Shown: positions 10,853 through 26,893 of the stretch, piece by piece
Layout of the letters: every line of letters starts with the position of its first letter
Position numbering within the stretch: the first letter of the stretch is position 1
NCBI RefSeq assembly: GCF_001019615.1
Contig: NZ_JNBQ01000018.1
Coordinates: 1 to 64,000, forward strand
Origin: Cellulosimicrobium funkei
GTDB taxonomy: Bacteria > Actinomycetota > Actinomycetes > Actinomycetales > Cellulomonadaceae
Direction: 5' to 3'
DNA: 64,000 bases
Position numbers and translations under genes: made by a program
The notes under the pieces: generated by a model
Databases searched by the model: none
What the model was told of the DNA's origin: nothing
What the model saw: only the letters and a program-made list of their open reading frames with translations

Positions 10853-11890
10853 GTGAGCGTCGAGCCGATGACGGCGTCTTCGATCCAAGGCGCCGTCCCC
10901 GCCGGCACGGCGTCGCCGCGGCCGGTCGCGGAGTCCGTCGACCCGGAGGGCCTGATCCCGCTGTCGGGTGTGCGGCGCCCTCTTCCCCTTCGTACGCTCT
11001 CGCCCCTCCGCTACCCGGGCTCGAAGCGCCGCATGATCCCCGCCATCGCCGAGGTCATCGAGGCCAATGTCCCGGCGCCCGAGCTGTTGGTCGAGCCGTT
11101 CTGCGGGGGCGCCAGCGTCTCGCTCGGGCTGCTTGAGATCGGCGCGGTGAAGCGGGTCTTCCTGGCAGATCTCGATCCGCTCATCGCAGCGTTCTGGAAG
11201 GTCGCGACTACCGACACCGATTGGCTCATTGCGGCAATGCGCAAGGAGCCGATAACCGTCGAGCGGTGGGACTACTGGCGCGGCTTCAAGCCGACGGGCG
11301 CGCGGAACCGGGCGCTTAAGTGCCTCTTCCTCAACCGGACGACCTTCTCCGGGATCATCGGCGGCAACGCCGGCCCGATCGGTGGCCGGGCTCAGCGCAA
11401 TTACAAGATCGACTGCCGCTTTGACATGGACGGCATCGAGGCCCGCCTGCGTCACGTCCGGGAACTCGCCGACGAGGGACGCATCGTGGGCGTCCACGAG
11501 GGTCGGTGGCAGGACTCCATCCGCGTGGCACTGGACATCCACGCCACCCGGGGCTGGCGTACGAAATCCCTCGTCTTCTACATGGACCCTCCGTACATCG
11601 AGAAGGCGGGCGGGATCTACCGCCGCTCGTTCACCGAGCGTCATCATCGCGACCTGGCCCAGTACCTAATCGGGAGCGGCGAGCGCTGGATCCTGTCGTA
11701 CGACAAGGAGCCCTTGGTGCTCGACCTTTACGGCGCGGACAAGGTGCCTGAGGCGCGTCGGTTCGCGGTACCGCACACGTACACAATGACCGGATCGCGA
11801 TCGAGTCCCGTGCCGGGCCGCGAGGTCCTCTTCACCAACCTGCCCCAGATCCCAGCCGCACGCGGCGAGTTCGACACCACGGAGTCTTGA
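10853..11890 (+). CDS. DNA adenine N6-methyltransferase, Dam (D12 class) family
   Basis: A 345-aa methylase expected to methylate adenine in duplex DNA using SAM. Motifs in alpha-class order: SPLRYPGSKRRMIP near residue 50 and EPFCGGASVSLG near 80 (SAM binding), then the catalytic DPPY in YMDPPYIEKAGGIY near 243. The GTG at 10853 is preferred because AGGAG lies 4 nt upstream; an ATG at 10841 is the alternative. Its stop overlaps the ATG of the HerA gene (ATGA). In this operon it could protect self DNA from the associated nucleases, which is inference. No lesion seen. Confidence 0.85.
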   Translation: MSVEPMTASSIQGAVPAGTASPRPVAESVDPEGLIPLSGVRRPLPLRTLSPLRYPGSKRRMIPAIAEVIEANVPAPELLVEPFCGGASVSLGLLEIGAVKRVFLADLDPLIAAFWKVATTDTDWLIAAMRKEPITVERWDYWRGFKPTGARNRALKCLFLNRTTFSGIIGGNAGPIGGRAQRNYKIDCRFDMDGIEARLRHVRELADEGRIVGVHEGRWQDSIRVALDIHATRGWRTKSLVFYMDPPYIEKAGGIYRRSFTERHHRDLAQYLIGSGERWILSYDKEPLVLDLYGADKVPEARRFAVPHTYTMTGSRSSPVPGREVLFTNLPQIPAARGEFDTTES

Positions 11891-13896
11891 TGAGCATCAC
11901 GTCCGCCCTTCTCGCGGCCCAGCAAACCGCGACGCCTCTCGCGGCGCTTGTCAACGACGGGTGCCACGCGATCGGCGGCGTCTTCCGCCTCGACTACAAC
12001 TCCGCCGTCGTGCTTACCGACGACTTTCGGAAGAAGCAGGCGGGCGGCGTACCCCACGGCGGGTTCCTCCTCGCCGCCGCGGGCACCCAGACCACGGAGG
12101 GGTTCGCGCTCGACGACGAGGAGCTGATCCTCCTCCGCGTGCGTGGCACCGCCCCGCTTCCTAACGAGCCTGACCTGGTCCAGACGCGGCTGGCGGTCGT
12201 ACGCGACGCAGGGGACTCGGGCAAGGGCTTCGACGAGGTCACGGACGAGTTGACCCGCAACGAGCTCCAGCAGTCCGCCTTCGACTGCGAGGTGATCGGG
12301 ACCTTCTACACCTCGGGCGACTCGCGCCTCGTCGAGTTCGGCGCCGACATCGACAATGTAGTCTCGTCGGCCAAGTACCAGGTCTTCCTGCCGTCGAAGA
12401 GCGTGCTGTCGTGGCTGGCGTCGTACCCCGAGACCGGCGAGAAGGATCTCCTGCCACTCGGTGTTGTTCGCTTTTCGTCGACCCGACGTCGGGCGCGAGC
12501 ATCTGGGATCGACCAGGCCGAGGTCCGGGTCCACATCGACGACTTTGTCGCGCGCAAGACCGCCGTGTTCGGCATGACGCGGACGGGCAAGTCCAACACG
12601 GTCAAGACGATCGTCACGGCTGTTCACCGCCAGAGTGCCGTCACCGGCGCACGCGTCGGTCAGCTGATCTTTGATCCGCAGGGTGAGTACGCGAACATCA
12701 ACGATCAGGACAAGACGGGTCTCCGGCTCCTCGGCGACACGGCCGACCAGGTGCGCGTCTACAAGGAGAGCCCGGACACGGGCGAAGCAGTGGAGCGTCC
12801 ACTTCGGATCAACTTTCTCGATCCGGCGAGTCTCCAGACGGTCTGGGCGATGGTGCAGCAGGAGGTCGCGGAATCGGCTTCCGCGGGCGCTCAGTACATG
12901 GCCGGCTTCCGTGCGGTCAGCTTCGCGGTGCCAGACTCGAAGGACTTCAGCGCGCTCGGCCACTTCGAGCGCAACCGCCTCGCGTTCTACGCCCTGCTCC
13001 ACCGTGCCGGCATCGCTGGCCCGCTCCCCAGTACACGTATCACGCTGACGAACGACCTGGTGGCCGCAGCCACGACGGGCTCGGGCGCAATCGCGGACGT
13101 CACGGGTTCCGGGAAGCACGCGTTCTTGACGAGTACCGGCGCTGCCGAGAAGCTCCTTGACTGGCTGAAGACTCAGAACGCCGCCGGTAAGCTCACGGAC
13201 TCCTGGAAGCAGGACTTCGACAAGGGTGAGCTCTCCGACATCTTGAAGGCCATGGAGGGTCGGGCGGGAGATGCCGCGATCAAGCGGCTCAAGCCGTTCC
13301 ACGACCGCAATGCCATCGGCGACATCGGTGAACTCGTGTGGCAGGACATGCTCGCGGGACGCCTGGTCATCATCGATCTCTCTAAGGGCAACGGCACTGT
13401 TGTGAAGACGCTCTCGGAGCGGATCGTCACGACGCTACTTGACCGCGCGCGTGACGACTTCGCAGCGGGTAAGGAGCCCCACCCCTTCCAGGTGATCGTC
13501 GAGGAAGCGCACAACCTGTTCGAGCGAGGCGCGAAGGAGGTTGCTGGGAACCCTTGGGTCCGCATGTCCAAGGAGGCGGCGAAGTACAAGATCGGACTGA
13601 TCTACGCGACGCAGGAGGTGTCCAGCGTGGATCAGCGCATCCTCTCGAACACGTCGAACTGGTTGGTCGCCCACCTTAACTCGGACAACGAGACGAAGGA
13701 GTTGTCGCATTACTACGACTTCAAGACGTGGGCCGAGAGCATCCGCCGTGCCGAGGATCAGGGGTTCGTGCGCATGAAGACCTACTCGGGCAAGTACATC
13801 GTTCCCGTCCAGGTCGCGAAGTTCGACCACGCGATGATCAACGAGGCCCGTCTGGCGTCCGGCCTGCAGCCCGTTGACCCCGCGAAGATCGTCTGA
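11890..13896 (+). CDS. HerA-like DUF87 ATPase
   Basis: A 668-aa hexameric-translocase-type ATPase of the FtsK-HerA superfamily. The N-terminal ~200 residues hold the HAS-barrel-like region, then Walker A GMTRTGKSNTVK near residue 227, Walker B FQVIVEEAHNLF near 535, and the downstream IYATQEVSSVDQRILSNTSN typical of HerA. It would pump or unwind DNA for a nuclease partner. The ATG at 11890 shares bases with the dam stop; the next start is 2 bp after its own stop, and that gene is NurA-like, the classic HerA partner. Confidence 0.9.
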   Translation: MSITSALLAAQQTATPLAALVNDGCHAIGGVFRLDYNSAVVLTDDFRKKQAGGVPHGGFLLAAAGTQTTEGFALDDEELILLRVRGTAPLPNEPDLVQTRLAVVRDAGDSGKGFDEVTDELTRNELQQSAFDCEVIGTFYTSGDSRLVEFGADIDNVVSSAKYQVFLPSKSVLSWLASYPETGEKDLLPLGVVRFSSTRRRARASGIDQAEVRVHIDDFVARKTAVFGMTRTGKSNTVKTIVTAVHRQSAVTGARVGQLIFDPQGEYANINDQDKTGLRLLGDTADQVRVYKESPDTGEAVERPLRINFLDPASLQTVWAMVQQEVAESASAGAQYMAGFRAVSFAVPDSKDFSALGHFERNRLAFYALLHRAGIAGPLPSTRITLTNDLVAAATTGSGAIADVTGSGKHAFLTSTGAAEKLLDWLKTQNAAGKLTDSWKQDFDKGELSDILKAMEGRAGDAAIKRLKPFHDRNAIGDIGELVWQDMLAGRLVIIDLSKGNGTVVKTLSERIVTTLLDRARDDFAAGKEPHPFQVIVEEAHNLFERGAKEVAGNPWVRMSKEAAKYKIGLIYATQEVSSVDQRILSNTSNWLVAHLNSDNETKELSHYYDFKTWAESIRRAEDQGFVRMKTYSGKYIVPVQVAKFDHAMINEARLASGLQPVDPAKIV

Positions 13897-13897
13897 C

Positions 13898-15325
13898 ATG
13901 CCCTACCCGATGGAGCGGGCATCCCGGCTGGGCCACGTCCCAGTCGTCAACAGCCAGGCAGTTCGTGATGCCTTCTCGCGCTGGCAGGTCGCCCAGGCGG
14001 CTCCATCGGACGTGGGTCTCGTCGCGTCGATGTGTCACACGCTCGAGAGCCTCCCCCACGCTCAGGCGTCCGCCGACGTTCGGTTTGCCATCACGGTCGA
14101 CGGCTCCGACACCGAGGTCGAGGCAACGCGCGAACACCCAACGGTCAAGGTCGGTTACGTCCGCGTTGCTGCGTCGTTCATCGACCTGTCCAAGCTCCAC
14201 GCCTCGGGAGTCGGTGAGTTCGTCGACCCCACCTTGCTCCGCGAGGCGCACAAGCACGCGGCATTCGACGGCGCGCTGCCTGGGTCAGGCCTAGTCATGC
14301 CCGGCCGAACTGGTGTCGACACCTGGCGCCAGGAGCTCGACAAGCTGCTTGCAACCACCAAGTTCGATGACGAGTCCCCGCTGACGCTCGCCGACATGCT
14401 CCTGGCGCTGCACGGCACACCGGACGCGGCCGCGGTCTCGATCTCGTTGCGCCGCTGCCCGACCTGCGGCAACAAGGATGATCAGCTTCCCGGTGGCGCA
14501 ATCACTGTGCCGAAGGCTGGAACCATCTGCCCCGCGTGCTCCGCACCTGTCTTCCTCGGAGATGCGCTCCGGACTCACGAGGAGTACCTGCCAGAGGGTT
14601 CAAACCAGTCGGCACTCACGCGGGTCATGCTCGTCGCCGAACGGCTAACATCCCTCGGCTACATGCAGGTCCTCCATCGCGACCCCCACGGTGCGGACGC
14701 CATGCGGCGGACTCTCTTCATCACGGACGGACCGCTCGCGCTCCATGGTGTTGTCGCGCCGCTGAAGCGTCGTTTCCAGGACTACCTCGGCGCTATGACG
14801 ACGGCGGCTGCGGCGAGCGGGAGACCGGCCACACCACTCGTGGTCGGAGTGGAGAAGTCAGGCCGGTTTGTTGAGCACGCCGACATCATCAAACACCTGA
14901 TCCCCGAGGGCAGTGTTATGGCTCTCTCGAGCGACTACATCAACCGGATCACCGGCCGCCCTGCTGAACACCAGTACGGCGTCGACGAGTTCTATGGACG
15001 GCGGTTCATCTATCGCACCCAGTCGGGGAGCGCGCTCGTCATCACCGTTCCGCCAAGTACGGGCATCGCCCCCTACGGCACGCCGGCGGGAGAGGACATC
15101 GCGAGTTATCCGACACTGAGGCCCATCTGCGAGGTGCTGGACCGCGTTCAGACCCGTCTGTACCCGAATGCGGTCATCCCTGTTGCGCTCGCGCACTCGG
15201 CTGCGTCCCTCCCGCTCGGGGTCGGGCAGTCCGTGCTTCGCGCCATGGGTCAGGACCTTCTCGGGCTTCGTCGCACGTCCCAGATCGTCCAGCGCGGACC
15301 GTTCCCAGGAGGCGGCGCGCGTTAA
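13898..15325 (+). CDS. NurA-like nuclease with zinc-ribbon insertion
   Basis: A 475-aa protein. TVDGSDTEVEA near residue 67 matches the NurA N-terminal Asp motif and LFITDGPLALHG near 273 its second acidic motif; VGVEKSGRFVEHADI follows. Between them lie CPTCG (about 186) and CPACS (about 210), a four-Cys zinc-ribbon pattern not usual in archaeal NurA, which is also shorter (roughly 300-400 aa). NurA resects DNA 5'-3' together with HerA. The ATG at 13898 is chosen because it follows the HerA stop by 1 bp; an upstream in-frame start would overlap HerA by 23 bp. Confidence 0.75.
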   Translation: MPYPMERASRLGHVPVVNSQAVRDAFSRWQVAQAAPSDVGLVASMCHTLESLPHAQASADVRFAITVDGSDTEVEATREHPTVKVGYVRVAASFIDLSKLHASGVGEFVDPTLLREAHKHAAFDGALPGSGLVMPGRTGVDTWRQELDKLLATTKFDDESPLTLADMLLALHGTPDAAAVSISLRRCPTCGNKDDQLPGGAITVPKAGTICPACSAPVFLGDALRTHEEYLPEGSNQSALTRVMLVAERLTSLGYMQVLHRDPHGADAMRRTLFITDGPLALHGVVAPLKRRFQDYLGAMTTAAAASGRPATPLVVGVEKSGRFVEHADIIKHLIPEGSVMALSSDYINRITGRPAEHQYGVDEFYGRRFIYRTQSGSALVITVPPSTGIAPYGTPAGEDIASYPTLRPICEVLDRVQTRLYPNAVIPVALAHSAASLPLGVGQSVLRAMGQDLLGLRRTSQIVQRGPFPGGGAR

Positions 15326-15372
15326 GTCACGTCGGCACCGGCTTGATAAACCAGAGCAACGCGGGGTGGAGA

Positions 15373-16446
15373 GTGGCTGAGATTGATGAGATCCGCGAAG
15401 AGGCACGGCGCAACACGCGCGGCCGCTTCGAGCAGTGGGCCAAGAACCCGACCTGCCATGCGAACACGATCTCCGCGGTGCACAACGTCCGCCTCGATAA
15501 GGCGGCCGCGGCGGCCGGGCTGACGCCCAGCTATGGCCAGTCGCCGTTCGCGATCGCTCGGGGCAACAGGTTCGAGGCCGGCCTGTTCTTCGACGACGCC
15601 GCAAAGCTCCGTTCCGCGCTGGAGCGGCGTCGTGCACTCCCCGAGGGGTCGTCAGGCTTCCTCGACCTCCGACTCAAGATGAACGGCGGCACCACCGTGT
15701 TGTCGATCAACGAGGCGCTGGAGAAGACAGAAGTGTGGCTGCGGGCCGTGGCCGCGCACAGCGACCCGCAAGAGACCATCGTCGCGGCACCGATGCTGAA
15801 GATCCCTCGCGGCGTGATCCTTCCTGAAGCCCTCCTGATCATCGACGCCTGCACGGTCACGCCCGCCGAGGACGGTCGACGCCTCATCACTGTCGGGGAG
15901 GTGAAGGTCTTCCCCGACCGGGGCGGGTACACCGACGCACACCAACTAGCCAGCTCTCGGGCCCAGGCCGGGCTGTACCAGCACGCAATGTCGCTCGTCG
16001 TCCACGCGCTCGGGCTTAACGACGCGATCAAGGTGAACCGCGAAGGGTTCCTCGTGTTCACCTGGCCCGGGTCGAACTCCCCCTCTGTGCGTGCGCACGA
16101 GGACCTCACGTACCAGGCGATCCGTGCTGAGCGTGGCTTCAACCGGCTCGAGGAGGTCGCTCAGGGGATCGCCCTCAAGGGCAGCTTTGCTGCGGACAAC
16201 GCAACGATCATCGCGCATGTCCTCGATGCCGAGACCGACTACTCCGAGAGATGCCTGTCGTTCTGCGATCTCGCGCCGCGATGCCACGCTCGAGCAGAAG
16301 CGTCAGGTGACGCATCCGTCCTCGGTGACGAGATCAAGCGCCTCCTCGGTGACATGCCCGTGTCTCGCGCGATCGACCTTCTCCACGGCGCCGTTCCGGC
16401 CGACGACCGCGAGGCGGACCTCGCCCGGCAGCTGGGGGTCGCATGA
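15373..16446 (+). CDS. Cas4/RecB-like PD-(D/E)XK nuclease with Fe-S-type cysteines
   Basis: A 357-aa protein with the Cas4/AddB nuclease layout: an N-terminal Cys (PTCHAN, about 17-27 depending on start), GNRFEAGLFF near 63, IIDACT near 157, the (D/E)xK pair in TVGEVKVF near 176, the Q-x-x-x-Y box in AGLYQHAM, and a C-terminal CLSFCDLAPRC, so one Cys early and three late as in 4Fe-4S Cas4 nucleases. The GTG at 15373 is a guess; a TTG at 15343 is also open. No CRISPR array or other cas gene is present. The stop overlaps the next ATG (ATGA). Confidence 0.75.
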   Translation: MAEIDEIREEARRNTRGRFEQWAKNPTCHANTISAVHNVRLDKAAAAAGLTPSYGQSPFAIARGNRFEAGLFFDDAAKLRSALERRRALPEGSSGFLDLRLKMNGGTTVLSINEALEKTEVWLRAVAAHSDPQETIVAAPMLKIPRGVILPEALLIIDACTVTPAEDGRRLITVGEVKVFPDRGGYTDAHQLASSRAQAGLYQHAMSLVVHALGLNDAIKVNREGFLVFTWPGSNSPSVRAHEDLTYQAIRAERGFNRLEEVAQGIALKGSFAADNATIIAHVLDAETDYSERCLSFCDLAPRCHARAEASGDASVLGDEIKRLLGDMPVSRAIDLLHGAVPADDREADLARQLGVA

Positions 16447-18008
16447 CGACTCGTGACATCGCTCTGAAGCTCCGCGCCTGGGACGCGGGGCGTCCGCTGA
16501 CGCGCTACTCGACCCTGCACCATGCGCTCGTCCCCGCCGATCAGACGATGCTCGTGGCGTTCGTCCGTATGGCCGGCGAGTCTCGTCCGTGGGGCATCGC
16601 GTGGGGCACGGCCGACGCAGAGCCGACGATGCAGACCGTTCCCGATGGTCGTGTGCGCGACGACGTTGCCGTGCTGTGTGCGGCGTTCGCAGAAGACCTC
16701 TTGGCGCACATGCGGGTCCACAACTGGACGTACGACCCCGTTGACGAGCGCGCGGAACCCGCTGACCTGCGTCAGCTGTGGCTACCGAACTCGGCCCATG
16801 TCGCGATGCTCCACCAGCTCGACTACGCCTACTCGCAGACGAAACACGGCGGAAGCAACCTTGACGTGCTGCGCTCTCTGGGCCGCCTGTGCGGCTGGCT
16901 CTTTCGCGACTCGACCCGCACCGGTCACCAGCACCTCGTCGATGCGAGCCAGGCGCTGCGGGACGCGTTCGTGTTCCCCGCCCAGAACGCGCGCTCGGCC
17001 CACCTGGGTTACCTGCTCGCTTGGCTTACCGCTGACGGTAGCCGAGCGGACCACATCGAAGCTGCGACAGCCGCGGAAGGTCTGACGGTCTCCCCCACGT
17101 TGGATCCGACGGTCGAGCGCGACACGCTGAGCAAGCCCGTCGAGGCGTGGAACCTCTCGCGAAGGGACGGACACGACAACGCCCCAGCGGCCGGCGTCGT
17201 CGACGCGACCCTCAGGGTTGAGCTCGAGCGCCGCTGGGACCTGACCCGGGCCGCGTATGAGTTGCTCTCGAACGACGACCGCAAGGTCAACGCGGGTGTT
17301 CCCGCGCTCGTCAAGGAAGCCCACCAGGAGTTCTGGTTCAGCCACCAGCGGGTCGAGCTCCGCCTCGCCGACCCAACCCAGGGCAAGGCGTACGTCGCGC
17401 ACCCCGAGACCGACTTCCATGGCTCGTCGGCGGCCTCCCGCTACCTCCAAAACGAGGCCGCCGATGAGGCGTTCTTCAACCACCTCGTCCACGACGACAC
17501 CGAGTTACTCGACGATGCGTTGGAGGCCGGCGACGCCATTCGAGGCGAGGTTGTCCAGGTCAGGGATGAGGGCGTAGGACGCACGACGAAACCCTTCTGG
17601 GTGGTGCGGGTCGACCCGACCGCTCCGAACCGGTTGCGTGAGAACGGCCGCCTCGTGCCCTACGGGTCGGCAGGCCACGAGGCGACAATCAGATCCATCG
17701 ACGCCACTGACGACGGCCTCGACGTCACTATCGAGTGGACGAAGCTGAAGACCCGCGCCCTGACTGTCAGGTCGGCGGCCAAGCCGGCCGACCCCAGCTG
17801 GCAGGGCACGATCGCCGACTTCGTCAGCTCTGATGCCGCCGACCTGACCAAACGCCGCAGCCAGCGCGTCTGGAAGGCGAAGGACGGCGCCGGGGCATGG
17901 CTCACGCACGGTCGTCAGCCCGCACCTACCACGATCGAGACCGACGACGGCGTAGTCGAGCAGCTCATCGATGACACCCAGCAGATCGAGAACGGGGCAC
18001 TCGCGTGA
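16443..18008 (+). CDS. Unknown protein, 521 aa, helicase-operon partner
   Basis: I do not recognise this family. It is a soluble protein without signal peptide, membrane helix or Cys cluster. The N-terminal 250 residues look alpha-helical (SAHVAMLHQLDYAYSQTKHG, LGRLCGWLFRDS). From about 370 a beta-rich stretch (IRGEVVQVRDEG, FWVVRVDPTAPNRLRENGRL, GLDVTIEWTKLKTRAL) resembles an OB-like or 1B-type barrel. Start and stop overlap both neighbours by 4 nt, so stoichiometric production with the downstream SF1 helicase is likely. It may be the split-off N-terminal portion of an Upf1-like helicase; that is inference. Confidence 0.65.
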   Translation: MTTRDIALKLRAWDAGRPLTRYSTLHHALVPADQTMLVAFVRMAGESRPWGIAWGTADAEPTMQTVPDGRVRDDVAVLCAAFAEDLLAHMRVHNWTYDPVDERAEPADLRQLWLPNSAHVAMLHQLDYAYSQTKHGGSNLDVLRSLGRLCGWLFRDSTRTGHQHLVDASQALRDAFVFPAQNARSAHLGYLLAWLTADGSRADHIEAATAAEGLTVSPTLDPTVERDTLSKPVEAWNLSRRDGHDNAPAAGVVDATLRVELERRWDLTRAAYELLSNDDRKVNAGVPALVKEAHQEFWFSHQRVELRLADPTQGKAYVAHPETDFHGSSAASRYLQNEAADEAFFNHLVHDDTELLDDALEAGDAIRGEVVQVRDEGVGRTTKPFWVVRVDPTAPNRLRENGRLVPYGSAGHEATIRSIDATDDGLDVTIEWTKLKTRALTVRSAAKPADPSWQGTIADFVSSDAADLTKRRSQRVWKAKDGAGAWLTHGRQPAPTTIETDDGVVEQLIDDTQQIENGALA

Positions 18009-19309: not shown

Positions 19310-19328
19310 AAAGCGGTCAGCACGCGGC
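19290..19328. terminator. Shared bidirectional terminator between two defence operons
   Basis: Perfect 16-bp inverted repeat (19290-19305 with 19313-19328) and a 7-nt loop. The helicase stop codon lies in the loop, so one arm is coding. The res stop is 3 bp beyond the other arm. An A-run in the loop gives no classic U-tract; function as terminator is inferred from position and symmetry. Confidence 0.7.
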
Positions 19329-19330
19329 GG

Positions 19331-22117
19331 TCAGTGCCTAACTGCCCGGGTGTGCTTGGGAAAGTCCTCGGATTGCTCGACCAGGATGTTACCGTGTCGG
19401 CCATCGCCGAACATGAAGTCGACCTTGATCGCGCTGAAGTGCGCCTCACCAAACTTGATCTTCCAGCCCTCGGACTCCCACTGGAGCTGGTCGATCTGGC
19501 CGGTGCCCTTGGTCTCGCGCACGAGGTAGAGGTAGGTCCCCTCGGGCTCACGCCGGACAATCGCCCAGTCCGGGTTGTAGTTGACGCCCAGCGGAATCGA
19601 AATCTTGAACCACTCCGGCAGTTTGACGAAGAGCGGCACGTCGTCACGTTCGTGCTCGAGGTACTTGGCAAATGCAACCTCGACGCCCGAGTCGCACACG
19701 ATCTTGTCGGTGACGCTCTTCGTGACGGGGACGACGAAGTCGGCCCGGGCGACCGTCTCGAACTGGTGCCGTTCCTTGAAGAGGGACGCCGACCAACTCT
19801 CGCCCGTCGGTGTGTAGACGATGCCGTCGGCGACCTGGTCGTACAGTGCCCTGCTTATCGCCGACTCGACCTGGTCGATGAATGCCGCAGGGTTGGCGCG
19901 CACCTGGTCTAGGTCGTCGATCTCGGTCAAGATGCGAACGATGGTGGCGCGTGACAACGGCAGCCGCCGGGTGAGCTCACCAACGACGTCGGGGACCCTC
20001 CGCGCACCCTCCACCTCGACAGTGCCCCGCTCGGTGACCTCGGCACCCGACACGCCGGCGACCGTGATGTCAATCTCGGCCTTGGAGATCCGGTACTTGA
20101 CCTGCTCGAGGGGCTCCATCTCATTGATGCGTCGTACGGACTCGGCGACGACTTTGTCCGTGTCGAAGTCGATCCGGTAGGTCGTCTTTGCCGAGATGCG
20201 GGCCCACAACTCTTGGAAGATCGGGTCGTCAAGGACCGCTTGCTTGAGGCGGAGCGTCGTCTTGTCCTTGGCGACGTTGACGATGCGGCCGGTGAAAGTC
20301 GTGCCAGTGTCGGTCTCGATCTCCTCCTGGAGGTCCTTGGCAAACGTCGCGAAGTCCTCGTACGCGATGACCGTGAGGAGATTGACGTCGTCGACGCGGC
20401 AACGTTCGCCGTTGTCCATCACAGGTAGACGCAGGCCGCGGCCGATCTGCTGGCGCTTGCGCAGGGTCGACCTGCCGTCTTGGAGGTTGCAGATCGTGAA
20501 GACGTTGGGGTTGTCCCAGCCCTCGACGAGTGCCGAGTGGCTGAAGATGAACCGGAGCGGCTCGTCACAGCTGAGTAGCTTCTCCTTGCCGCGCATGATC
20601 CTCTCGAACGCCCCTTCTGCGTCCTTCGTCTCGGCGCCCGTGGCGGTGAAGGAGAGGTCCTTCGGTTCACCCTTCGAGGTCGTGGCGAAGTACCCGTCGT
20701 GGACGTCCTTGACGTCTGGCATCTGGGTCTTGATTGCCCGGTACTTGGGGTTGTTGCGGACGAACTCATACTCGTCCTCGAACCACGTTCGGAACTTCGC
20801 GCCGGCCGGGTGGTAGTTCGCGACCTTGTCGATGAAGAACAAGGTGAGCGGCTTCAGGCGTGCCTCGATAACCCCACGGCGCAACTGCCGAACGAGTTGG
20901 AGCTCCTTCTCAAAGTGGCTCTCGACGGCCTGGCGGATCATGAGTCGCTGGAGCTGCTCGGAGTTGGTCCGGTCGCCACCCTCACGGATGCGTGTGCCGT
21001 TGCCGAACTCGATCCACCCGGGCTGGCCGTCCATCCCGACATGGATGTCCTCGACCGACCACCCGGCGTACGCGGACAGCCCGCCACTGAGGTCGTGAAG
21101 GTCGTCGTCTTTGCGGAGTGTGACCTGGGTGAGCTTGGTGCCCTGCGCGGTGGCTCTGTTGATTCGCGCGGTCGCTGTGACCGCAGCGGCAGTGCCCGTG
21201 ACCTTGAGGACGTCGACCGCCGCTTCATTCGGGTCCTCGTCCTTGACGATGGACAAGACACCGATCCGTTTGACCAGGCGAGGGCTGTGGTCGTATGCGT
21301 CCACTGGTGTCAGCCGATAGACAAGGTGCTTGAGGTCCTTGTGCGTGGCCGAGTACCGCAGTTTGAACAGCGGTGACAGCGAAGCAATCGCCTGCTGGCG
21401 TGTCGGGGTTTCCATGTTCTGTGGCTCGTCCATGATAACGATCGGCCGGCACGCCTGGATGTACTCGATCGGCGCGTAACCGTACTCAGTCTGCTTGTTC
21501 ATCACGTTCGACTCCTTGGTGAAGGCGTCGATGGTGATTACCATGATCTGCACGTGGCTCGCGATGCCGAAGTTGCGTGCGGTCGTCGGCTTGGAGTTCC
21601 ACACGTACGAGTCGACCTGAAGGCCGTCGTAAAGGTCGCGGATGTGGTCTGCGAGCAGGTCGAGGCTCGAGAGCACACCCTCACGGATCGCAACGCTCGG
21701 CACGACGATGACGAACTTTGTGTAGCCGTACGCCTTGTTGAGCTCGGCGATCGTGCGCAGGTAGACGTACGTTTTGCCAGTCCCAGTCTCCATCTCGACG
21801 CTGAAGTCCAGGGCGTCCGAGTCCTCACTGACGTCCGCGCGCAGGTCCGCGGCGATTGAGGGAGTCTCGCTGCCATCGCTGCGCACAACCGGCCGATCCT
21901 GGACGCGGCGCAGGTTCGTCTTGATCGTCGAAGGTGCGATGTCGAGAGAGTTGCCGAACACAACCTGGTCGAACAGTCCGCCCCCCGCGACCGCCTTAGG
22001 ACCAGAAGTAGCTAGACCCTGCCCGAGGCCTTCCTGCCCAGCGAACAGGTCCACGACGCTCGCGATCGCGTCGAGTTGGTACTGCTGGTTTGCGTCAAAC
22101 CTGATCTCGACTGCCAT
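19331..22117 (-). CDS. Type III restriction enzyme Res subunit
   Basis: A 928-aa SF2 translocase-nuclease. Walker A METGTGKTYVYLR near residue 110, DEAD-type VIMDEPQNM near 229, motif VI region GRGLRLPVMDNGERC near 570, and a C-terminal PD-(D/E)XK site (NPDWAIVR, then LVRETKGTGQ near 860). Type III enzymes cut between two inversely oriented unmethylated sites in an ATP-dependent way with Mod. The ATG at 22117 shares a base with the Mod stop (TGATG), fixing the start. Complete, with no frame lesion. Confidence 0.92.
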   Translation of the reverse strand: MAVEIRFDANQQYQLDAIASVVDLFAGQEGLGQGLATSGPKAVAGGGLFDQVVFGNSLDIAPSTIKTNLRRVQDRPVVRSDGSETPSIAADLRADVSEDSDALDFSVEMETGTGKTYVYLRTIAELNKAYGYTKFVIVVPSVAIREGVLSSLDLLADHIRDLYDGLQVDSYVWNSKPTTARNFGIASHVQIMVITIDAFTKESNVMNKQTEYGYAPIEYIQACRPIVIMDEPQNMETPTRQQAIASLSPLFKLRYSATHKDLKHLVYRLTPVDAYDHSPRLVKRIGVLSIVKDEDPNEAAVDVLKVTGTAAAVTATARINRATAQGTKLTQVTLRKDDDLHDLSGGLSAYAGWSVEDIHVGMDGQPGWIEFGNGTRIREGGDRTNSEQLQRLMIRQAVESHFEKELQLVRQLRRGVIEARLKPLTLFFIDKVANYHPAGAKFRTWFEDEYEFVRNNPKYRAIKTQMPDVKDVHDGYFATTSKGEPKDLSFTATGAETKDAEGAFERIMRGKEKLLSCDEPLRFIFSHSALVEGWDNPNVFTICNLQDGRSTLRKRQQIGRGLRLPVMDNGERCRVDDVNLLTVIAYEDFATFAKDLQEEIETDTGTTFTGRIVNVAKDKTTLRLKQAVLDDPIFQELWARISAKTTYRIDFDTDKVVAESVRRINEMEPLEQVKYRISKAEIDITVAGVSGAEVTERGTVEVEGARRVPDVVGELTRRLPLSRATIVRILTEIDDLDQVRANPAAFIDQVESAISRALYDQVADGIVYTPTGESWSASLFKERHQFETVARADFVVPVTKSVTDKIVCDSGVEVAFAKYLEHERDDVPLFVKLPEWFKISIPLGVNYNPDWAIVRREPEGTYLYLVRETKGTGQIDQLQWESEGWKIKFGEAHFSAIKVDFMFGDGRHGNILVEQSEDFPKHTRAVRH

Positions 22118-24018
22118 CAGACCGTCTTCATCGCGATGCCGGCGTTCTTCGCGTTCGTGAACACGTTCGCCTTGACCGCGTCCCGACCAGCGAAGCCATC
22201 CTCGAGGAAGACGAGCACACGCGGGTTGAGTGCAACTGCGGCATTGGCCACATCGTCGGTAATCGCGTCAGACAGTACAACGGCCACGCCGTCAGCAACG
22301 ATGACCTCGGTGCCACCGACCCCGTGTCGCACCCATGACTCGTCCAATGCGACGCCCTCCTTGAGAAAGACCTCTGCGGCCAGCGAATCACCCCGCGGCT
22401 CGACCTTGACGAGAGTCGATCCGTGCAATGTCAGTTCGTCAGCATCGTCGACACTCGTGTACACGAAGTTGCTGTCCTTAAGCCGCAGGGTTCTTAGCCC
22501 GGCGCGTGAAGCTCCCTTAACGTGAGCGCGCACTGCAGCCACGCGCTTGAAGGTGATGTCTGAAACGGTCTCGAAGCCCGCTTTCCGGGCGGCAGACTCA
22601 CGGCCAGTCGGCTCCGGAATGTTGACGAGAATGTATCGCCTTGTACCGTTGTCTTCCGCGTTCTGAAGCGCTACACCATGGGCGGTCGATCCCGAGCCTG
22701 CAAAGAAATCCATCACGAGATCGTCGCCTTTCGTGAAGACTGAGACCAGGTACTGGATTAGGCGCTCAGGCTTTGGGAAATCAAACACAACTCCCCAGTC
22801 TCGCTTCATGCGCGAGCTCGAAGCCTTGGTTGTGCCAAGGTTGCGGAGCACTGTAAGGACGTGTCCCTGCGTCGAACTACGCTGCTTGTATCCATAGATC
22901 GCGCCGGTCGGAGTCATGGCGAACCATGTTGACTTTCCTTCGGCGTCTTCGATGGGAACAAAGCCGTTCGAGATGAACAGTTCAAGGAGACGCTTCGAAC
23001 TCCAGCCGCTATAGACTCGCGCAGGCGTCGAGAGAGTTCCGTCTACGACTTCAACGGGGTCGAGGACATGCGGCCAAGCGTCGGTTCGCGGCGAAACGGT
23101 GAACGCATCCTGCGAAGCGGGAAACCCAGCAGGAAGCAAGACCTCGCTCGCAGGGTTAGCCGGGCCATTCTTGGTGATCGAGTTTTCGATTCGGTCATTG
23201 AAGAGCTTACTGCCCTCGTCAATGTTCGGGTCGATTACGCCGGGCCGCGAAACATGTTCGATGTCGCGAGCGAACGCAACAATGTACTCGTGGTTCACCT
23301 TGATTGAACTCTGCTGTTCGATGTTTCCATCGTTGTTCCAGACGAACGTCGCCAGGTGATTCTCCGGCCCGAAGACCTCACGGAGCAGCAGCATGAGATT
23401 CGCCATCTCGACATCGCTTATCGACACCAGAACCACGCCATCTCGAGTGAGAAGGTTCCGTGCCAGCACAAGGCGGGGATACATCATCGAGAGCCATCGG
23501 CTATGCAGCCGGCCGTTCGCAGCGTCGGTCCCGGCGGAAGCGCGTCGACCAGCTGAGTCAATCTGACCTGACCACTCGAGGTACTGTCGAGTGGTGTCGG
23601 TAAAGTCGTCAGCATAGACGAAGTCGGATCCGGTATTGTACGGCGGATCAATGTAGATCATCTTGACTCGGTCGTTGTAGGCCTTTTGAAGGAGCTTAAG
23701 CACCTCTAGGTTGTCGCCTTCAACGAAGACGTTCTTCGCCCCGTCCCATTCAGCGGACCGAGCCAGGTCCGGCACAAGAGCGCCATGCGAAGGAGACTGC
23801 AGCGAGCGAACCGCTTCTGCCTTCCCCGCCCACATGAGGCCGTACCGCTCAGGACCGTCCGCGGCGGTGGTGACCGCAACGCTGAGGAGTTCGCCCAATC
23901 GGTTCGCGTCAAGCACGCCGTCAGCAAGGATGCCCGGGAGGAGTTCCTCCAGTGCGGCGCGCCTGGCCGCACTCAGGTCTGGCATCTCGAGGTCTACCTT
24001 GGCCGGTTCTTCGGTCAT
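22117..24018 (-). CDS. Type III modification methylase Mod
   Basis: A 633-aa N6-adenine methylase of the beta group: DPPYNTGSDF comes first (residue about 122) and the SAM motif DFFAGSGSTAHG later (about 439), with the target-recognition region between. It methylates one strand of the site recognised by the Mod-Res complex. The ATG at 24018 (MTEEPAKVDLEMPDLS) is chosen; the frame continues open upstream but without family-like sequence and across the divergent promoter. No simple-sequence repeat is seen, so no sign of phase variation. Cotranscribed with res. Confidence 0.92.
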   Translation of the reverse strand: MTEEPAKVDLEMPDLSAARRAALEELLPGILADGVLDANRLGELLSVAVTTAADGPERYGLMWAGKAEAVRSLQSPSHGALVPDLARSAEWDGAKNVFVEGDNLEVLKLLQKAYNDRVKMIYIDPPYNTGSDFVYADDFTDTTRQYLEWSGQIDSAGRRASAGTDAANGRLHSRWLSMMYPRLVLARNLLTRDGVVLVSISDVEMANLMLLLREVFGPENHLATFVWNNDGNIEQQSSIKVNHEYIVAFARDIEHVSRPGVIDPNIDEGSKLFNDRIENSITKNGPANPASEVLLPAGFPASQDAFTVSPRTDAWPHVLDPVEVVDGTLSTPARVYSGWSSKRLLELFISNGFVPIEDAEGKSTWFAMTPTGAIYGYKQRSSTQGHVLTVLRNLGTTKASSSRMKRDWGVVFDFPKPERLIQYLVSVFTKGDDLVMDFFAGSGSTAHGVALQNAEDNGTRRYILVNIPEPTGRESAARKAGFETVSDITFKRVAAVRAHVKGASRAGLRTLRLKDSNFVYTSVDDADELTLHGSTLVKVEPRGDSLAAEVFLKEGVALDESWVRHGVGGTEVIVADGVAVVLSDAITDDVANAAVALNPRVLVFLEDGFAGRDAVKANVFTNAKNAGIAMKTV

Positions 24019-24139
24019 CGTCGTCGTCGCTCCGCAGGTCAGGGGGTGTCTGAACGAGATTATCGGTGAGGGCTGACACCTGCGTGTGTCTGGCGCACGT
24101 GTCCAGGTGAATGTCACCGGGTTGACGTAGCGTGTCCAC
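24019..24139. promoter_or_regulatory. Divergent promoter region mod / helicase-nuclease
   Basis: The 121-bp gap separates the starts of mod (-) and the UvrD-type helicase-nuclease (+). It must contain both promoters. GTGTCTGGCGCACGTGTCC and GCGTGTCCACGTGTC at 24084-24140 share CACGTG-like cores, a possible operator; no specific regulator is implied. Confidence 0.4.
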
Positions 24140-26893
24140 GTGTCACAGCCTGCATCGACGCCCTCACTCCCCGTCCTCGAAGGCGAGGCCGCTCGCGCCG
24201 TCGCCCACCGGGGCAGCCACATCCAGATCATCGCAGCGGCGGGTGCCGGCAAGACGGAGGTCGTCTCCCAGCGAGTGGCCTCACTCCTGAACGACGGCGA
24301 GGATCCAGAGTCGATCGTCGCGTTCACGTTCACCGAGAAGGCCGCCAAGGAGCTCAAGGAGCGTATCCGCGAGCGGGTTGGCGCCGACAGGGTCGACGTG
24401 CTCGGCAAGCTGTTCGTCGGCACGATCCATGCCTACTGCTTCAGGTTGCTGCAGACCTACGTCCCCACCTGCGAGACCTACACCCCGCTCGACTCCAACC
24501 AGCTGACGAACCTGCTCTACCGCGAGCAGAACCGGCTGCTGCTCAAGCGCCTGCACAAGGACGGCAAGCTCTTCAAGGCGATCGCACTGTTCCAGTCGAA
24601 CCTCGACGTCGTGGAGAACGAGCTCATCGCGATCGACGACCTTCCGGACAGCGACTTCAAGGACTCGCTCCGGCGCTACTACTCGATGCTCGACCACTAC
24701 CGGTTCATGTCGTTCGGCACACAGATCGTCAGAGCCGTCGAGGAACTCGAGAAGTCCGACGTTCACGCGAAGGTCACCGAGAACCTCCGCCACCTCATCG
24801 TCGACGAGTACCAGGACATCAACCCCGCTCAGGAGCGGCTCATCGAGCTCATCGCGAAGCCGCATGGCAGTGCGAACGTCGTCGTCGTCGGTGACGACGA
24901 CCAGGCGATCTACCAATGGCGCGGCTCGAACGTGCGCAACATCGTCAAGTTCACCGACCGGTACGGAGCCCACACCGCGGTTGAGCAGTTCCACCTGCTG
25001 ACCAACCGCCGATCGCGGCCGGCGATCGTCCAGGTCGCGAACCAGTTCGCGCACTCGATCCCGGAGCGCCTCGACAAGCAGATGGGCACGTTCCGCCCGG
25101 CCGAAGGGCCGGCGGTCTCCATCGTCATCGGGCACGACGACGAGGAGGCCGAGGCCGACGCGATCGCGATGGACATCGAGGCCCTGCACGACCAGGGCGT
25201 CGCCTATCGGGACATCGCGATCCTGGTCCGAGGCAAGGTCGCCTACGCCAAGATCCTCGACGCCCTGGAGGTCTCCGGGATCCCCGTGCAGCCCGGAGGG
25301 CGGACCGGCCTGTTCGAGCAGCCCGAGGCCGCCGTCTTCGGAGCCACGTACGCCTGGCTCGCCGACATCGACTGGGCGCCGGGTCGGTTCATCCAGCGCG
25401 AGAAGATCGAGCTCGATGCCCTGCTAGACGACTACCGCACGGTGTTCGACCTCGAAGCGAACGACGTCGACGTCCTGCGCCCGTTCCTCTCACTCTGGAG
25501 GGGACGGAGTGTCCAGAAGAACTTCGACCCGAGCCTCGTCGGTGACTTCTACGCCCTGACGGAGTTGCTTCGAATTGCCGACTGGGACCTGACCGATGAC
25601 CGGCAGCGCAACCGTCTTGGGACGATCGCCCGGTTCACCAACGTTCTGGCGGACTACGAGACGGTCAACCGGCGGTCCCGTCGCGACGCGGAGAACCCCG
25701 GAGAGCAGGTTGGCGGCGCTATAGGAGACCTCTGGTTCTACCGCAACTTCGCGCTACTGCTCATCAACTACGCGAACGGCAATTACGACGACTTCGACGG
25801 CGAGGAAGACCTCCTCGCCGACGGAGTCGCCCTCGGAACAGTCCACGGATCCAAGGGGCTCGAGTGGCCCGTCGTCTTCCTACCGTCGCTGACCGCAAGC
25901 CGGTTCCCGTCGAGCAAGGTTGGCTCGGCCGGCGACTGGCTCGTGCCCACGGATATGTTCGACGCCGCGCGGTACGAAGGCTCCGACGCCGACGAGCGTC
26001 GCCTGTTCTACGTAGCCATCACCCGCGCACGCGACTGGGTTGCGCTCTCATCGCACGCCAAGGTCAGGAAGTCGAAGGCGTCGCCCTCGCCGTACCTCCT
26101 TGAGGTCGCGGGATACGCGGCTGACGAGGATATGGACCTACCGACGTCGGCGCACGGCAAGGGGATCGACATCCCCGACCTCGCGATCACCTACAGCCAG
26201 CTCGCCGCATACGACTCATGCCCGCAGAGCTACCTGCTGCGCAACGAGCTGGGGTTCATGCCCGCGATCCAGTCCGAGATCGGGTATGGAAACGCCGTCC
26301 ACCACGTGATGCGCATCCTCGCCGAGCAGACCCAGGCCACCGGCAAGCTGCCGACGCCGAAGCAGATCAACGACCTGCTCACAGGCGACTTCTACCTGCC
26401 GTTTGCCAACAAGGCCGGGCACAAGGAGATGCGCGAGCGCGCCCGGAAGCTCGTCTTCAAGTACATGACCGACTACAAGGAAGACCTGCTGCGTACGTGG
26501 GCCACGGAACGACCGTTCGAGCTCTACCTGCCCGGCGTCGTCGTCAGCGGCCGCGCCGATGTCATCTACGACGAACACGACGGCGTCCCGACCAACCTCG
26601 CGATCGTCGACTACAAGACCGCCGTCGGAGAGATCGCCCCACTCCAGCTCCAGGTGTACGCCGACGCCGGTCGCCGCGAAGGTCTCAGCGTCGGGGCCGC
26701 GTTCATCCACGACATGGGTGCGACGACGCGCCACGAGGTGCCGGTGGGCGATGCGGCGATCGCTGCTGCCGAGGAGCAGGTCATCGTCACGGCCGAGGCG
26801 CTCAAGGCGCGGGAGTTCGCGCCGAAGCCCGAACTGACGAAGTGCCGGCGATGTGACGTTCGGTTGATCTGCAAAGCCGCCGTCCTGAACTAG
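24140..26893 (+). CDS. UvrD-family helicase fused to PD-(D/E)XK Fe-S nuclease
   Basis: A 917-aa single-chain helicase-nuclease. Helicase: Walker A AAAGAGKTEVVSQR near residue 35, FTFTEKAAKELKER, DEYQD near 223, DDDQAIYQWRG, GTVHGSKGLEWPVVF near 570, VAITRARDW near 625. Nuclease: SGRADVIYDE near 803 and AIVDYKTAVG near 823 supply the acidic residues and Lys, with LQVYADAGR after. Cys in CPQSYLLRNE and CRRCDVRLICK match the AddB/AdnA Fe-S pattern. The start is the GTG at 24140. It resembles AdnA-type proteins but stands alone, divergent from mod, and is additional to the chromosomal AdnAB at the right end. Confidence 0.85.
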   Translation: MSQPASTPSLPVLEGEAARAVAHRGSHIQIIAAAGAGKTEVVSQRVASLLNDGEDPESIVAFTFTEKAAKELKERIRERVGADRVDVLGKLFVGTIHAYCFRLLQTYVPTCETYTPLDSNQLTNLLYREQNRLLLKRLHKDGKLFKAIALFQSNLDVVENELIAIDDLPDSDFKDSLRRYYSMLDHYRFMSFGTQIVRAVEELEKSDVHAKVTENLRHLIVDEYQDINPAQERLIELIAKPHGSANVVVVGDDDQAIYQWRGSNVRNIVKFTDRYGAHTAVEQFHLLTNRRSRPAIVQVANQFAHSIPERLDKQMGTFRPAEGPAVSIVIGHDDEEAEADAIAMDIEALHDQGVAYRDIAILVRGKVAYAKILDALEVSGIPVQPGGRTGLFEQPEAAVFGATYAWLADIDWAPGRFIQREKIELDALLDDYRTVFDLEANDVDVLRPFLSLWRGRSVQKNFDPSLVGDFYALTELLRIADWDLTDDRQRNRLGTIARFTNVLADYETVNRRSRRDAENPGEQVGGAIGDLWFYRNFALLLINYANGNYDDFDGEEDLLADGVALGTVHGSKGLEWPVVFLPSLTASRFPSSKVGSAGDWLVPTDMFDAARYEGSDADERRLFYVAITRARDWVALSSHAKVRKSKASPSPYLLEVAGYAADEDMDLPTSAHGKGIDIPDLAITYSQLAAYDSCPQSYLLRNELGFMPAIQSEIGYGNAVHHVMRILAEQTQATGKLPTPKQINDLLTGDFYLPFANKAGHKEMRERARKLVFKYMTDYKEDLLRTWATERPFELYLPGVVVSGRADVIYDEHDGVPTNLAIVDYKTAVGEIAPLQLQVYADAGRREGLSVGAAFIHDMGATTRHEVPVGDAAIAAAEEQVIVTAEALKAREFAPKPELTKCRRCDVRLICKAAVLN

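What the first reader, a model, noticed from the sequence alone, without database searches (positions are those of the whole stretch)
10853..26893. Candidate undescribed composite defence locus: Dam-HerA-NurA-Cas4-like-unknown-SF1 helicase plus Type III RM plus UvrD-nuclease
Nine intact adjacent genes encode two adenine methylases, a HerA/NurA pair, a Cas4-like nuclease, two helicases (one fused to a nuclease) and a Type III Res. Two operons converge on one shared hairpin and the third gene is divergent from mod. The composition does not match BREX, DISARM, Dnd/Ssp, Zorya, Druantia, Hachiman, Hma, Wadjet or the SIR2/DUF4297-HerA systems as I know them. The methylase plus end-processing nucleases suggests modification-sensed DNA degradation. 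That mechanism is inference; gene content and layout are seen.
Basis: partly seen in the sequence, partly recalled or inferred. Interest (0 to 1): 0.9.

Follow-up and report, generated by a model that had tools for sequence, protein, structure and literature searches.

The report
Three-module DNA-degrading defence locus
A mobile element in an actinobacterium carries nine genes that probably protect the cell by marking its own DNA and cutting and chewing up foreign DNA; three of the nine form an apparently undescribed DNA-degrading trio that recurs in many bacteria next to other DNA-cutting machines.

Summary
The nine intact genes are there, as cargo of a 35.3-kb element integrated at tRNA-Met (35-bp repeat, tyrosine recombinase). 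They are three modules, not one recurring six- or nine-gene system. M1 (g1-g3, Dam-HerA-NurA) recurs without M2 as HerA-NurA-methylase in other actinobacteria, on plasmids and in a Vibrio phage; its HerA is nearest in the PDB to TdpA. M3 (g7-g9) is a Type III RM with a UvrD-Cas4-like fusion, a neighbourhood published in 2017. M2 (g4-g6: Fe-S nuclease by motif, unknown protein, Upf1/Dna2-like helicase) is complete in 73 of the 80 examined loci of 189 relatives; g4 and g5 match no PADLOC, Pfam or NCBIfam model. M2 and M3 are co-inherited: 8 of 36 close loci have g9 convergent to g6 with the same 8-bp overlap, 6 of them with mod-res. Other M2 clades sit beside a TM0106 nuclease (19 of 36) or SbcC (31 of 44). 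M1 beside M2 was seen only here. Best reading: restriction makes ends, M2 and g9 degrade from them; M1 is a separate modification-gated nuclease. No activity was tested.

The parts
8464..8498 (+). Left attachment repeat: 35-bp exact copy of the tRNA-Met 3' end
   Evidence: Exact 35-bp direct repeat of 43735-43769
10868..11890 (+). g1: D12-class N6-adenine DNA methyltransferase (Dam), module M1
   Evidence: PF02086 61.9 bits, cut-off 22; best PADLOC model PD-Lambda-5_B 2.7e-59; F.GG and DPPY motifs
11887..13896 (+). g2: HerA-type DNA translocase, module M1
   Evidence: PF01935 55.1 bits, cut-off 23.2; nearest PDB sequence TdpA, E 4.2e-20; Walker A and VEEAH motifs
13898..15325 (+). g3: NurA-family nuclease, module M1
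   Evidence: No profile hit; tblastn to plasmid proteins annotated NurA, best E 2e-32; conserved VDGS, CxxC pairs, DGPL
15343..16446 (+). g4: Cas4/AddB/Dna2-like Fe-S PD-(D/E)XK nuclease (motif-based), module M2
   Evidence: C38, E78, D168, E186-x-K188, Q208, Y212, C304, C308, C314 invariant in 37 rows; ordered motif in 37 of 37 rows, 0 of 7400 shuffles; no Pfam, NCBIfam, PADLOC or PDB profile hit
16443..18008 (+). g5: conserved protein of unknown fold, module M2
   Evidence: No significant model in Pfam, NCBIfam, PADLOC or PDB; family HMM found it in 79 of 80 M2 loci
18005..19309 (+). g6: SF1 (Upf1/Dna2-like) helicase, module M2
   Evidence: PF13086 44.8 bits, cut-off 27; PDB search with the 20-row profile: DNA2 5.7e-16, SMUBP-2 8e-16
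19290..19328 (.). Perfect 16-bp hairpin between the convergent g6 and g7, probable shared terminator
19331..22117 (-). g7: Type III restriction subunit Res, module M3
   Evidence: PF19778 97.5 bits and PF04851 49.9 bits, above cut-off; PADLOC REase_III 2.9e-229
22117..24018 (-). g8: Type III methyltransferase Mod, module M3
   Evidence: PF01555 93.5 bits; PADLOC MTase_III 6.1e-139; variable centre over 6 aligned loci, as expected of a target-recognition domain
24140..26893 (+). g9: UvrD-like helicase fused to a Cas4-like (PF12705) nuclease, module M3
   Evidence: PF00580 184.8, PF13361 107.4 and PF12705 75.9 bits; C694, C902, C905, C911 invariant in 11 rows
42076..43302 (-). Tyrosine recombinase of the integrative element that carries the locus
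   Evidence: PF00589 57.1 bits, cut-off 27.1
43735..43809 (-). tRNA-Met, integration target; its 3' 35 bases are the right attachment repeat
   Evidence: ARAGORN; repeat 43735-43769

Best explanation
The locus is defence cargo of a tRNA-Met-integrated element and consists of three modules. M3 is a Type III restriction-modification pair with its UvrD-nuclease. M2 is an apparently undescribed trio: Fe-S nuclease g4, unknown g5 and SF1 helicase g6. In this clade M2 and M3 form one inherited unit. Mod methylates the host genome; Mod-Res cuts unmethylated incoming DNA; g9 and the g4-g6 pair (together like a Dna2 protein split over two genes) enter at the ends and unwind and degrade the DNA, so that it cannot be ligated, repaired or re-methylated. 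M1 is a self-contained modification-gated machine joined upstream: Dam marks host DNA, and HerA pumps unmarked DNA into NurA for degradation, as TdpAB is thought to do with phosphorothioate as the mark (recalled). Shown: gene content, motifs, recurrence, co-inheritance, mobile context. Inferred: every biochemical step, the protection by methylation, and any cooperation of M1 with M2 or M3.
For: Domains and motifs. M2-M3 unit: a g9 relative lies beside M2 in 9 of 36 close loci; in 8 of these it is convergent to g6 with exactly 8 bases of overlap, and 6 of the 8 have Mod and Res. Pairwise distances of g4-g9 over 6 to 8 loci, window included, correlate at r 0.88-0.98. The records are named Kineosporia, Arthrobacter, Nocardioides, Acidimicrobiia and unclassified actinobacteria. 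Defence or mobile surroundings: TrwC relaxase in L010 and L012, type ISP and GmrSD restriction in L009 and GmrSD in L011, a 35-kb integrated element here. Other M2 clades sit beside other end-processing enzymes: relatives of a TM0106 RecB-like nuclease in 19 of 36 close loci (two of them scanned, both TIGR03491 above cut-off), SbcC in 31, SbcD in 32 and Wadjet JetA-D in 11 of 44 distant loci. PMC5704561 (passages) names UvrD-Cas4 fusions beside Mod/Res as components of defence systems. M1 without M2: HerA-NurA with a g1 relative in L096, L097, L098, L120, with another annotated methylase in L103 and L105. HerA nearest to TdpA.
Against: No activity data. g4 as a nuclease rests on motifs defined on its own alignment: profile searches were negative, and hhalign gave 0.2% against g9 and 1.0% against TM0106; the same test gave only 0.8% for TM0106 against g9, two accepted nucleases, so it has little power. 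M2 loci of the TM0106 clade that were looked at (L021, L035) lie among housekeeping-type genes, which fits repair better than defence. L014 has M2 without g9 or Mod-Res. A g9 relative also occurs without M2 or Mod-Res matches (L119). g3 matches TdpB only at E 0.58. Four of the eleven loci opened for M1 show no methylase next to HerA-NurA (L099, L101, L102 by tblastn with g1; L104 by annotation), and L100 is truncated. M1 next to M2 was seen once only. The co-divergence could come from shared descent of linked genes without functional coupling.
Confidence: 0.5

Rival explanations
1. One integrated nine-gene system: two methylases mark self, and HerA-NurA, the g4-g6 trio, UvrD-nuclease and Res act as one complex or pathway.
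For: Genes are contiguous, g1-g6 are tightly packed on one strand and g6/g7 share a hairpin.
Against: 0 of 80 M2 loci have M1 relatives at E<=1e-5; M1 recurs without M2; no other sampled genome had both g3 and g5. In the window g9 faces away from g6, while it converges on g6 in 8 of 9 close loci with g9 (6 of 6 with the full block in that order), which points to rearrangement.
Confidence: 0.1
2. M2 is a DNA double-strand-break repair (end-resection) machine, a split Dna2-like enzyme, that only hitch-hikes beside restriction systems.
For: SF1 helicase nearest to DNA2/SMUBP-2; SbcC (Rad50-like) in 31 of 44 distant loci and a TM0106 nuclease relative in 19 of 36 close loci; M24 peptidase, PRK and PALP genes near M2 in L021 and L035.
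Against: The trio of this clade is patchy (g5 matched 3 of 346 phylum genomes and 3 of 297 order genomes, own genome included each time, one order match weak), sits on a mobile element here and near relaxase genes in L010 and L012, and is tied to g9 by a constant 8-bp overlap. Wadjet lies near it in 11 of 44 distant loci.
Confidence: 0.25
3. Three unrelated defence systems stacked by chance in an island, with no cooperation, not even between M2 and M3.
For: g9 relatives exist without M2: L119 (no M2 or Mod-Res match) and L121 (with a Mod-like gene); the passages seen of PMC5704561 mention no trio beside Mod/Res/UvrD-Cas4. M2 without g9 is the common state: 27 of 36 close loci (some cut short by contig ends) and 44 of 44 distant loci at E<=1e-8 (L063 has one 30-bit match at E 6e-8).
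Against: Constant order, orientation and 8-bp overlap in 8 loci although g4, g5, g6 and g9 of the seven measured are only 41-72% identical to the window's; g9 is kept in L009 and L011, where no Mod-Res match was found in the stretch held. On the g6 tree the g9-bearing rows need one change (support 96/78), but 21 unlabelled rows were not counted and six of them lie inside that side of the branch.
Confidence: 0.15

Closest known systems
UvrD-Cas4-like fusion with Type III Mod/Res (Hudaiberdiev et al. 2017, PMC5704561; passages seen; author name recalled)
   Same: g7-g8-g9: UvrD helicase fused to a PF12705 nuclease beside Mod and Res.
   Different: The passages seen do not mention a g4-g5-g6 trio beside it.
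HerA-NurA end-resection complex (archaeal and bacterial; listing and abstract starts seen)
   Same: Adjacent HerA-type translocase and NurA-type nuclease.
   Different: Here with an adenine methylase and on a mobile element; g3 has no Pfam NurA hit.
Tdp system (TdpA-TdpB-TdpC; mechanism recalled, no paper seen; PDB entry 8wet matched)
   Same: g2 nearest in the PDB to TdpA (E 4.2e-20); translocase plus nuclease plus a DNA-modifying enzyme.
   Different: The mark would be adenine methylation instead of phosphorothioate; g3-TdpB similarity is not significant (E 0.58).
PD-lambda-5 (PMC9519451, passages seen)
   Same: Its PADLOC model PD-Lambda-5_B is the best PADLOC match of g1 (2.7e-59) and of the g1 relative in L098 (3.2e-49); both are methylases.
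   Different: The other PD-Lambda-5 model did not appear among hits of the nine genes.
Dna2 / TM0106 (TIGR03491) Fe-S nuclease-helicase enzymes
   Same: g4 has the same order of nuclease and cysteine motifs as the TM0106 alignment; g6 is a Dna2/Upf1-type helicase; relatives of the trio lie beside a TM0106 gene.
   Different: Nuclease and helicase are separate genes with an unknown protein between them.
AddAB / RecBCD / AdnAB
   Same: Helicase-nuclease degradation from ends; g9 has a UvrD helicase fused to a RecB-type nuclease.
   Different: No AddB/RecC-type gene among the nine; NCBIfam addA and recB models match g9 far below their cut-offs.
Wadjet and SbcCD
   Same: Neighbours of distant M2 relatives in 11 and 31-32 of 44 loci.
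   Different: Neither was seen among the nine window genes.

Membership tests
Type III restriction-modification | Mod: beta-class N6 methylase with DPPY and FxGxGS motifs and a variable TRD | tested here: met
   PF01555, MTase_III 6.1e-139, motifs; 0-7% invariant columns in the centre of the 6-row alignment
Type III restriction-modification | Res: SF2 translocase plus C-terminal PD-(D/E)XK endonuclease | tested here: met
   PF04851, PF19778, REase_III 2.9e-229, motifs TGTGKT, PDW, ETKG
Type III restriction-modification | ATP-dependent cleavage between two head-to-head sites | not testable with these tools
   biochemistry needed
UvrD-Cas4 + Mod/Res neighbourhood (PMC5704561) | UvrD-nuclease fusion adjacent to Type III mod and res | tested here: met
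   g9 beside g8 and g7; literature passages
HerA-NurA pair | Adjacent HerA-family ATPase and NurA-family nuclease | tested here: met
   PF01935; tblastn to annotated NurA; g2 and g3 relatives adjacent in the eleven loci opened, L096-L105 and L120
Tdp system | TdpA-like HerA translocase | tested here: met
   Best PDB match TdpA, E 4.2e-20
Tdp system | TdpB-like nuclease | tested here: inconclusive
   E 0.58 over a short stretch at the DGPL motif only
Tdp system | Phosphorothioate-forming enzyme (TdpC; recalled) | tested here: inconclusive
   No DndC- or PAPS-reductase-type family among the hits shown for the nine proteins (PADLOC lists of g8 and g9 are capped at 25); TdpC itself was not compared
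Dna2-type helicase-nuclease | Fe-S RecB-family nuclease motif | tested here: met
   37 of 37 related rows; no profile support
Dna2-type helicase-nuclease | SF1 helicase of the Dna2/Upf1 group | tested here: met
   PDB profile search, DNA2 5.7e-16, SMUBP-2 8e-16
Dna2-type helicase-nuclease | Both domains in one polypeptide | tested here: not met
   g4 and g6 are separate genes here and separate ORFs in the relatives
BREX, DISARM, Dnd/Ssp, Zorya, Druantia, Hachiman, Wadjet, MADS, Gabija | System-specific core genes (recalled: PglZ/BrxC, DUF1998 helicase, DndBCD, ZorAB, DruE, JetABCD, GajA) | tested here: not met
   PADLOC hits shown are RM-class methylases and nucleases, PD-Lambda-5_B (g1), HerA/mad8/DndH ATPase domains (g2), weak MkoA, GajB and other helicase-domain hits (g6), weak PbeA and Cas3b (g7), GajB and RTasHel UvrD-domain hits (g9) (g8 and g9 lists capped at 25 of 37 and 59)

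The most novel reading that the evidence does not exclude
g4-g5-g6 is a previously undescribed bacterial helicase-nuclease, a Dna2-like enzyme split over two genes plus an unknown third subunit, that acts as a plug-in end-degradation engine: separate clades have been coupled to different end-making or end-binding machines (Type III RM with UvrD-nuclease; TM0106 nuclease; SbcCD, often with Wadjet; and here also a methylation-gated HerA-NurA). In the SbcCD clade this would be a bacterial counterpart of the eukaryotic Mre11-Rad50/Dna2 resection partnership.
Probability: 0.4. Interest if true: 0.78.

Novelty: new variant of a known kind. Interest (0 to 1): 0.62.

Why it matters
The window resolves into one known neighbourhood (M3), one little-described translocase-nuclease with a methylase (M1) and one conserved trio (M2) for which the searched model libraries and paper searches gave no description. 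Relatives of the trio occur across Actinomycetota and in metagenome-assembled genomes of Gemmatimonadota, Planctomycetota and Myxococcota, beside different DNA-cutting systems. If it degrades DNA from ends, it would be a shared effector across restriction, SbcCD and Wadjet contexts, and would make testable whether restriction systems need dedicated nucleases to finish off cut DNA. A two-gene Dna2 analogue next to SbcCD would bear on the origin of the Mre11-Rad50/Dna2 pathway.

Tried and rejected

g4 as a nuclease: profile searches negative; hhalign against g9 and TM0106 not significant. A control pair of accepted nucleases (TM0106 family against g9) also failed in the same set-up, so I treat these negatives as uninformative and rely on the ordered motif. 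The motif was read off the same alignment and the 37 rows are related, so 37 of 37 is not 37 independent cases; the shuffle control used a looser pattern than the count, which makes it conservative.

g5 against g9 and against NurA: no relation. I suspected that the 325-aa protein before g4 in the SbcCD clade was a nuclease; its alignment shows no such motif to my eye, and members scanned had no Pfam, PADLOC or NCBIfam hit.

Recombination endpoints for the inverted M3 block: no inverted repeat longer than 9 bases between 19280-19350 and 26850-27300.

M2 in viruses: two viral-contig scans, one with g5 alone and one with three g6 sequences, gave no relative; g3 alone likewise. g5 in plasmids: none. 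g6 in plasmids: 96 records, those listed up to about 34% identity, three opened. g9 in 394 class genomes at E<=1e-100: 2, own included. g9 in plasmids at E<=1e-60: 1.

Limits: the genome-contig scan kept 80 of 189 relatives, so locus counts are for those 80. The scan was made with g6, so g6 in 80 of 80 is by construction. Seven loci without a g4 hit have g5 or g6 starting at or within about 260 bases of a contig end. Gene calls in fetched loci are ORFs of 90 aa or more; one ORF in L082 matched both the g4 and the g5 HMM, so g4 there is doubtful. g5 and g9 are broken in L013. The g6 tree left out L013 and L043. L013 was left out of the distance test. Annotations of most neighbours were not looked at one by one.

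Full report
Observation. Pfam supports Dam (g1), HerA (g2), an SF1-type AAA helicase (g6), Type III Res (g7) and Mod (g8) and a UvrD helicase fused to a PF12705 nuclease (g9), all above curated cut-offs. g3, g4 and g5 match nothing in Pfam, NCBIfam or PADLOC at the limits used. g3 is a NurA relative by tblastn to plasmid genes annotated NurA and by conserved motifs. g4 shows the ordered motif of Fe-S RecB-family nucleases (Cas4, AddB, Dna2, TM0106; that the motif belongs to these is recalled, and seen for TM0106): C38, RGxxFE78, D168, E186-x-K188, Q208xxxY212, C304-x3-C308-x5-C314, its key residues invariant in 37 aligned members and found in order in 37 of 37 rows against 0 of 7400 shuffled rows. 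The 16-bp hairpin between g6 and g7 and the divergent g8/g9 pair are as described.

Setting. The locus lies in a 35.3-kb insert of lower GC (66.9% against about 76% in the flanks). It is bounded by a 35-bp exact repeat of the tRNA-Met 3' end (8464-8498 and 43735-43769), with a tyrosine recombinase next to the tRNA. Pieces of a coupling-ATPase gene (TraG/T4SS domains), an ArdC-N domain and a transposase share the insert. So the nine genes are cargo of an integrative element. No same-family genome in the order search matched g5 or g3.

Recurrence: M2. A scan of the species-genome collection with a three-sequence g6 alignment found 189 relatives, of which 80 were kept. Family HMMs recovered g5 in 79 of 80 and g4 in 73 of 80 loci (g6 is in 80 of 80 because it was the query); the seven without g4 are cut off by a contig end near g5 or g6, and g4 in L082 is doubtful. 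The order g4-g5-g6 holds from loci at 70% identity in g6 to those at about 30%. The midpoint-rooted g6 tree of 79 rows separates a close group (35 rows) from a distant, mainly streptomycete group (44 rows). The close group includes records named as Gemmatimonadota, Planctomycetota and Myxococcota besides Actinomycetota. This trio is therefore a real, conserved unit.

Recurrence: M2 with M3. Of the 36 close loci, 9 have a g9 relative; 8 of them have it convergent to g6 with exactly 8 bases of overlap, and 6 of those 8 have Mod and Res in the order g6> <g9 g8> g7> (L008, L010, L012, L013, L015, L016). L009 and L011 keep g9, but no Mod-Res match was found in the stretch held; GmrSD, DUF4011-helicase or MTES_1575-helicase genes lie around them. 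L023 has g9 on the same strand as g6, followed by another N6/N4 methylase and a ResIII-domain protein. Pairwise protein distances of g4 to g9 over 6 to 8 loci, window included and L013 left out, correlate at r 0.88-0.98; at most 1 of 2000 random permutations (8-locus pairs) or 8 of 720 (6-locus pairs) reach the observed value. In the window the g9-Mod-Res block is inverted relative to these loci. I conclude that M2 and g9 form an old unit in this clade, usually with Mod-Res, and that the window holds a rearranged copy. Against this, L014 has M2 alone and L119 has a g9 relative without M2.

Recurrence: other partners. In 19 of 36 close loci a relative of one 641-aa protein follows g6; two of these proteins were scanned and both are TM0106-family RecB-like nucleases (TIGR03491 at 176 and 163 bits, cut-off 97). 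Genes near two such loci are of housekeeping type. In the distant group SbcC is found in 31, SbcD in 32, a conserved 325-aa protein in 33 and Wadjet JetA-D in 11 of 44 loci; a Streptomyces plasmid has the same trio-Wadjet order with an annotated JetD. In two Micromonospora loci SbcD-SbcC lies after g6 instead of before g4, so the link survives rearrangement. On the g6 tree each of three partner labels (UvrD-nuclease 9 rows, TM0106 18, SbcCD 31) needs one change against the rows of the other groups, 0 of 500 shuffles as low for each; 21 rows in no group were not counted and some lie inside the labelled groups, and only the SbcCD branch has full support.

Recurrence: M1. g3 relatives occur in 8 of 346 phylum genomes, own included. 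The seven others all have a HerA relative beside NurA; L096, L097 and L098 add a g1 relative in the order HerA-NurA-Dam; L099, L101 and L102 show none, and L100 is truncated. Three of the five plasmid hits were opened: Halorarius and Deferribacter have HerA, NurA and another annotated DNA methylase, Tolypothrix has HerA-NurA without a methylase next to it. One of two Vibrio phage hits was opened: HerA in two ORFs, NurA and, on the other strand, a Dam-like gene, right after the integrase. None of the 80 M2 loci has g1, g2 or g3 relatives at E<=1e-5 in the stretch held. So M1 is its own module, joined to M2 only here as far as examined. Its HerA is nearest in the PDB to TdpA; g3 matches TdpB only at E 0.58.

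Mechanism. M3 should act as a Type III RM with a dedicated helicase-nuclease; PMC5704561 (passages seen) already proposed that UvrD-Cas4 fusions are parts of defence systems and named Mod/Res as their commonest neighbours. M2 combines an Fe-S nuclease and an SF1 helicase whose profile is nearest to DNA2 and SMUBP-2, which is the make-up of Dna2 split over two genes. The partners found most often make or bind DNA ends. I infer that M2 and g9 degrade DNA from restriction-made ends, and that Dam protects host DNA from HerA-NurA in M1. These steps are untested. The main rival for M2 is DNA repair, which the TM0106 and SbcCD contexts support; both roles may hold in different clades.

Novelty. M3 is known. 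M1 is a methylase-bearing variant of HerA-NurA/Tdp-like machines; I saw no description of it in searches (listings and abstract starts) or in the passages read of PMC12839542, PMC10853773 and PMC9519451; one search found no paper on Tdp. For M2 I found no model for g4 or g5 in the libraries and no description in the listings of searches. The library lacks most subscription papers and all bioRxiv preprints, and PADLOC is of 2023, so this is weak evidence of absence.

Noticed in passing
window 8464-43769: 35.3-kb tRNA-Met-integrated element with a 35-bp direct repeat, tyrosine recombinase, coupling-ATPase pieces, ArdC-N, SSB, ankyrin and amidase-domain ORFs.
   Followed up: partly
L044-L087, e.g. 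L045 1717-18069, L106 2318-14021: Streptomycete cluster SbcC-SbcD / 325-aa protein / g4-g5-g6 / in 11 of 44 Wadjet JetABCD. L063 lies 8-10 kb from the start of a complete chromosome record, and L058, L059, L064 have identical g6 in one draft genome, hinting at chromosome-end locations.
   Followed up: partly
alignment A8; e.g. L044 6238-7212: Conserved 325-aa protein family before g4 in 33 of 44 distant loci, with no hit in the model libraries for the members scanned.
   Followed up: partly
L120 1309-5751: Vibrio phage 10N.286.54.E5_PE002 carries HerA (in two ORFs), NurA and a Dam-like gene right after its integrase.
   Followed up: partly
L105 7979-11777: HerA gene of Deferribacter plasmid pDF308 is interrupted by an IS200/IS605-TnpB element.
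   Followed up: no
L008-L013, L015, L016, g6/g9 junction: Exactly 8 bases of overlap between convergent g6 and g9 in 8 of 8 loci.
   Followed up: yes
L108 8358-13194: Euzebya megaplasmid: g6 relative after a hypothetical gene and a DNA cytosine methyltransferase, a possible further variant.
   Followed up: no
window 22117-24018: mod has lower GC (59%) and GC3 (69%) than the other eight genes, as if its recognition part came from elsewhere.
   Followed up: no
L010 2871-6666, L012 2582-7023: TrwC relaxase and helicase domains and (L012) a coupling-protein gene just upstream of M2-M3.
   Followed up: partly
window 60331-60834 and contig position 63888-64598: The three PF12705 nuclease matches of the whole own genome all lie on this contig: g9 and these two, outside the element.
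   Followed up: no
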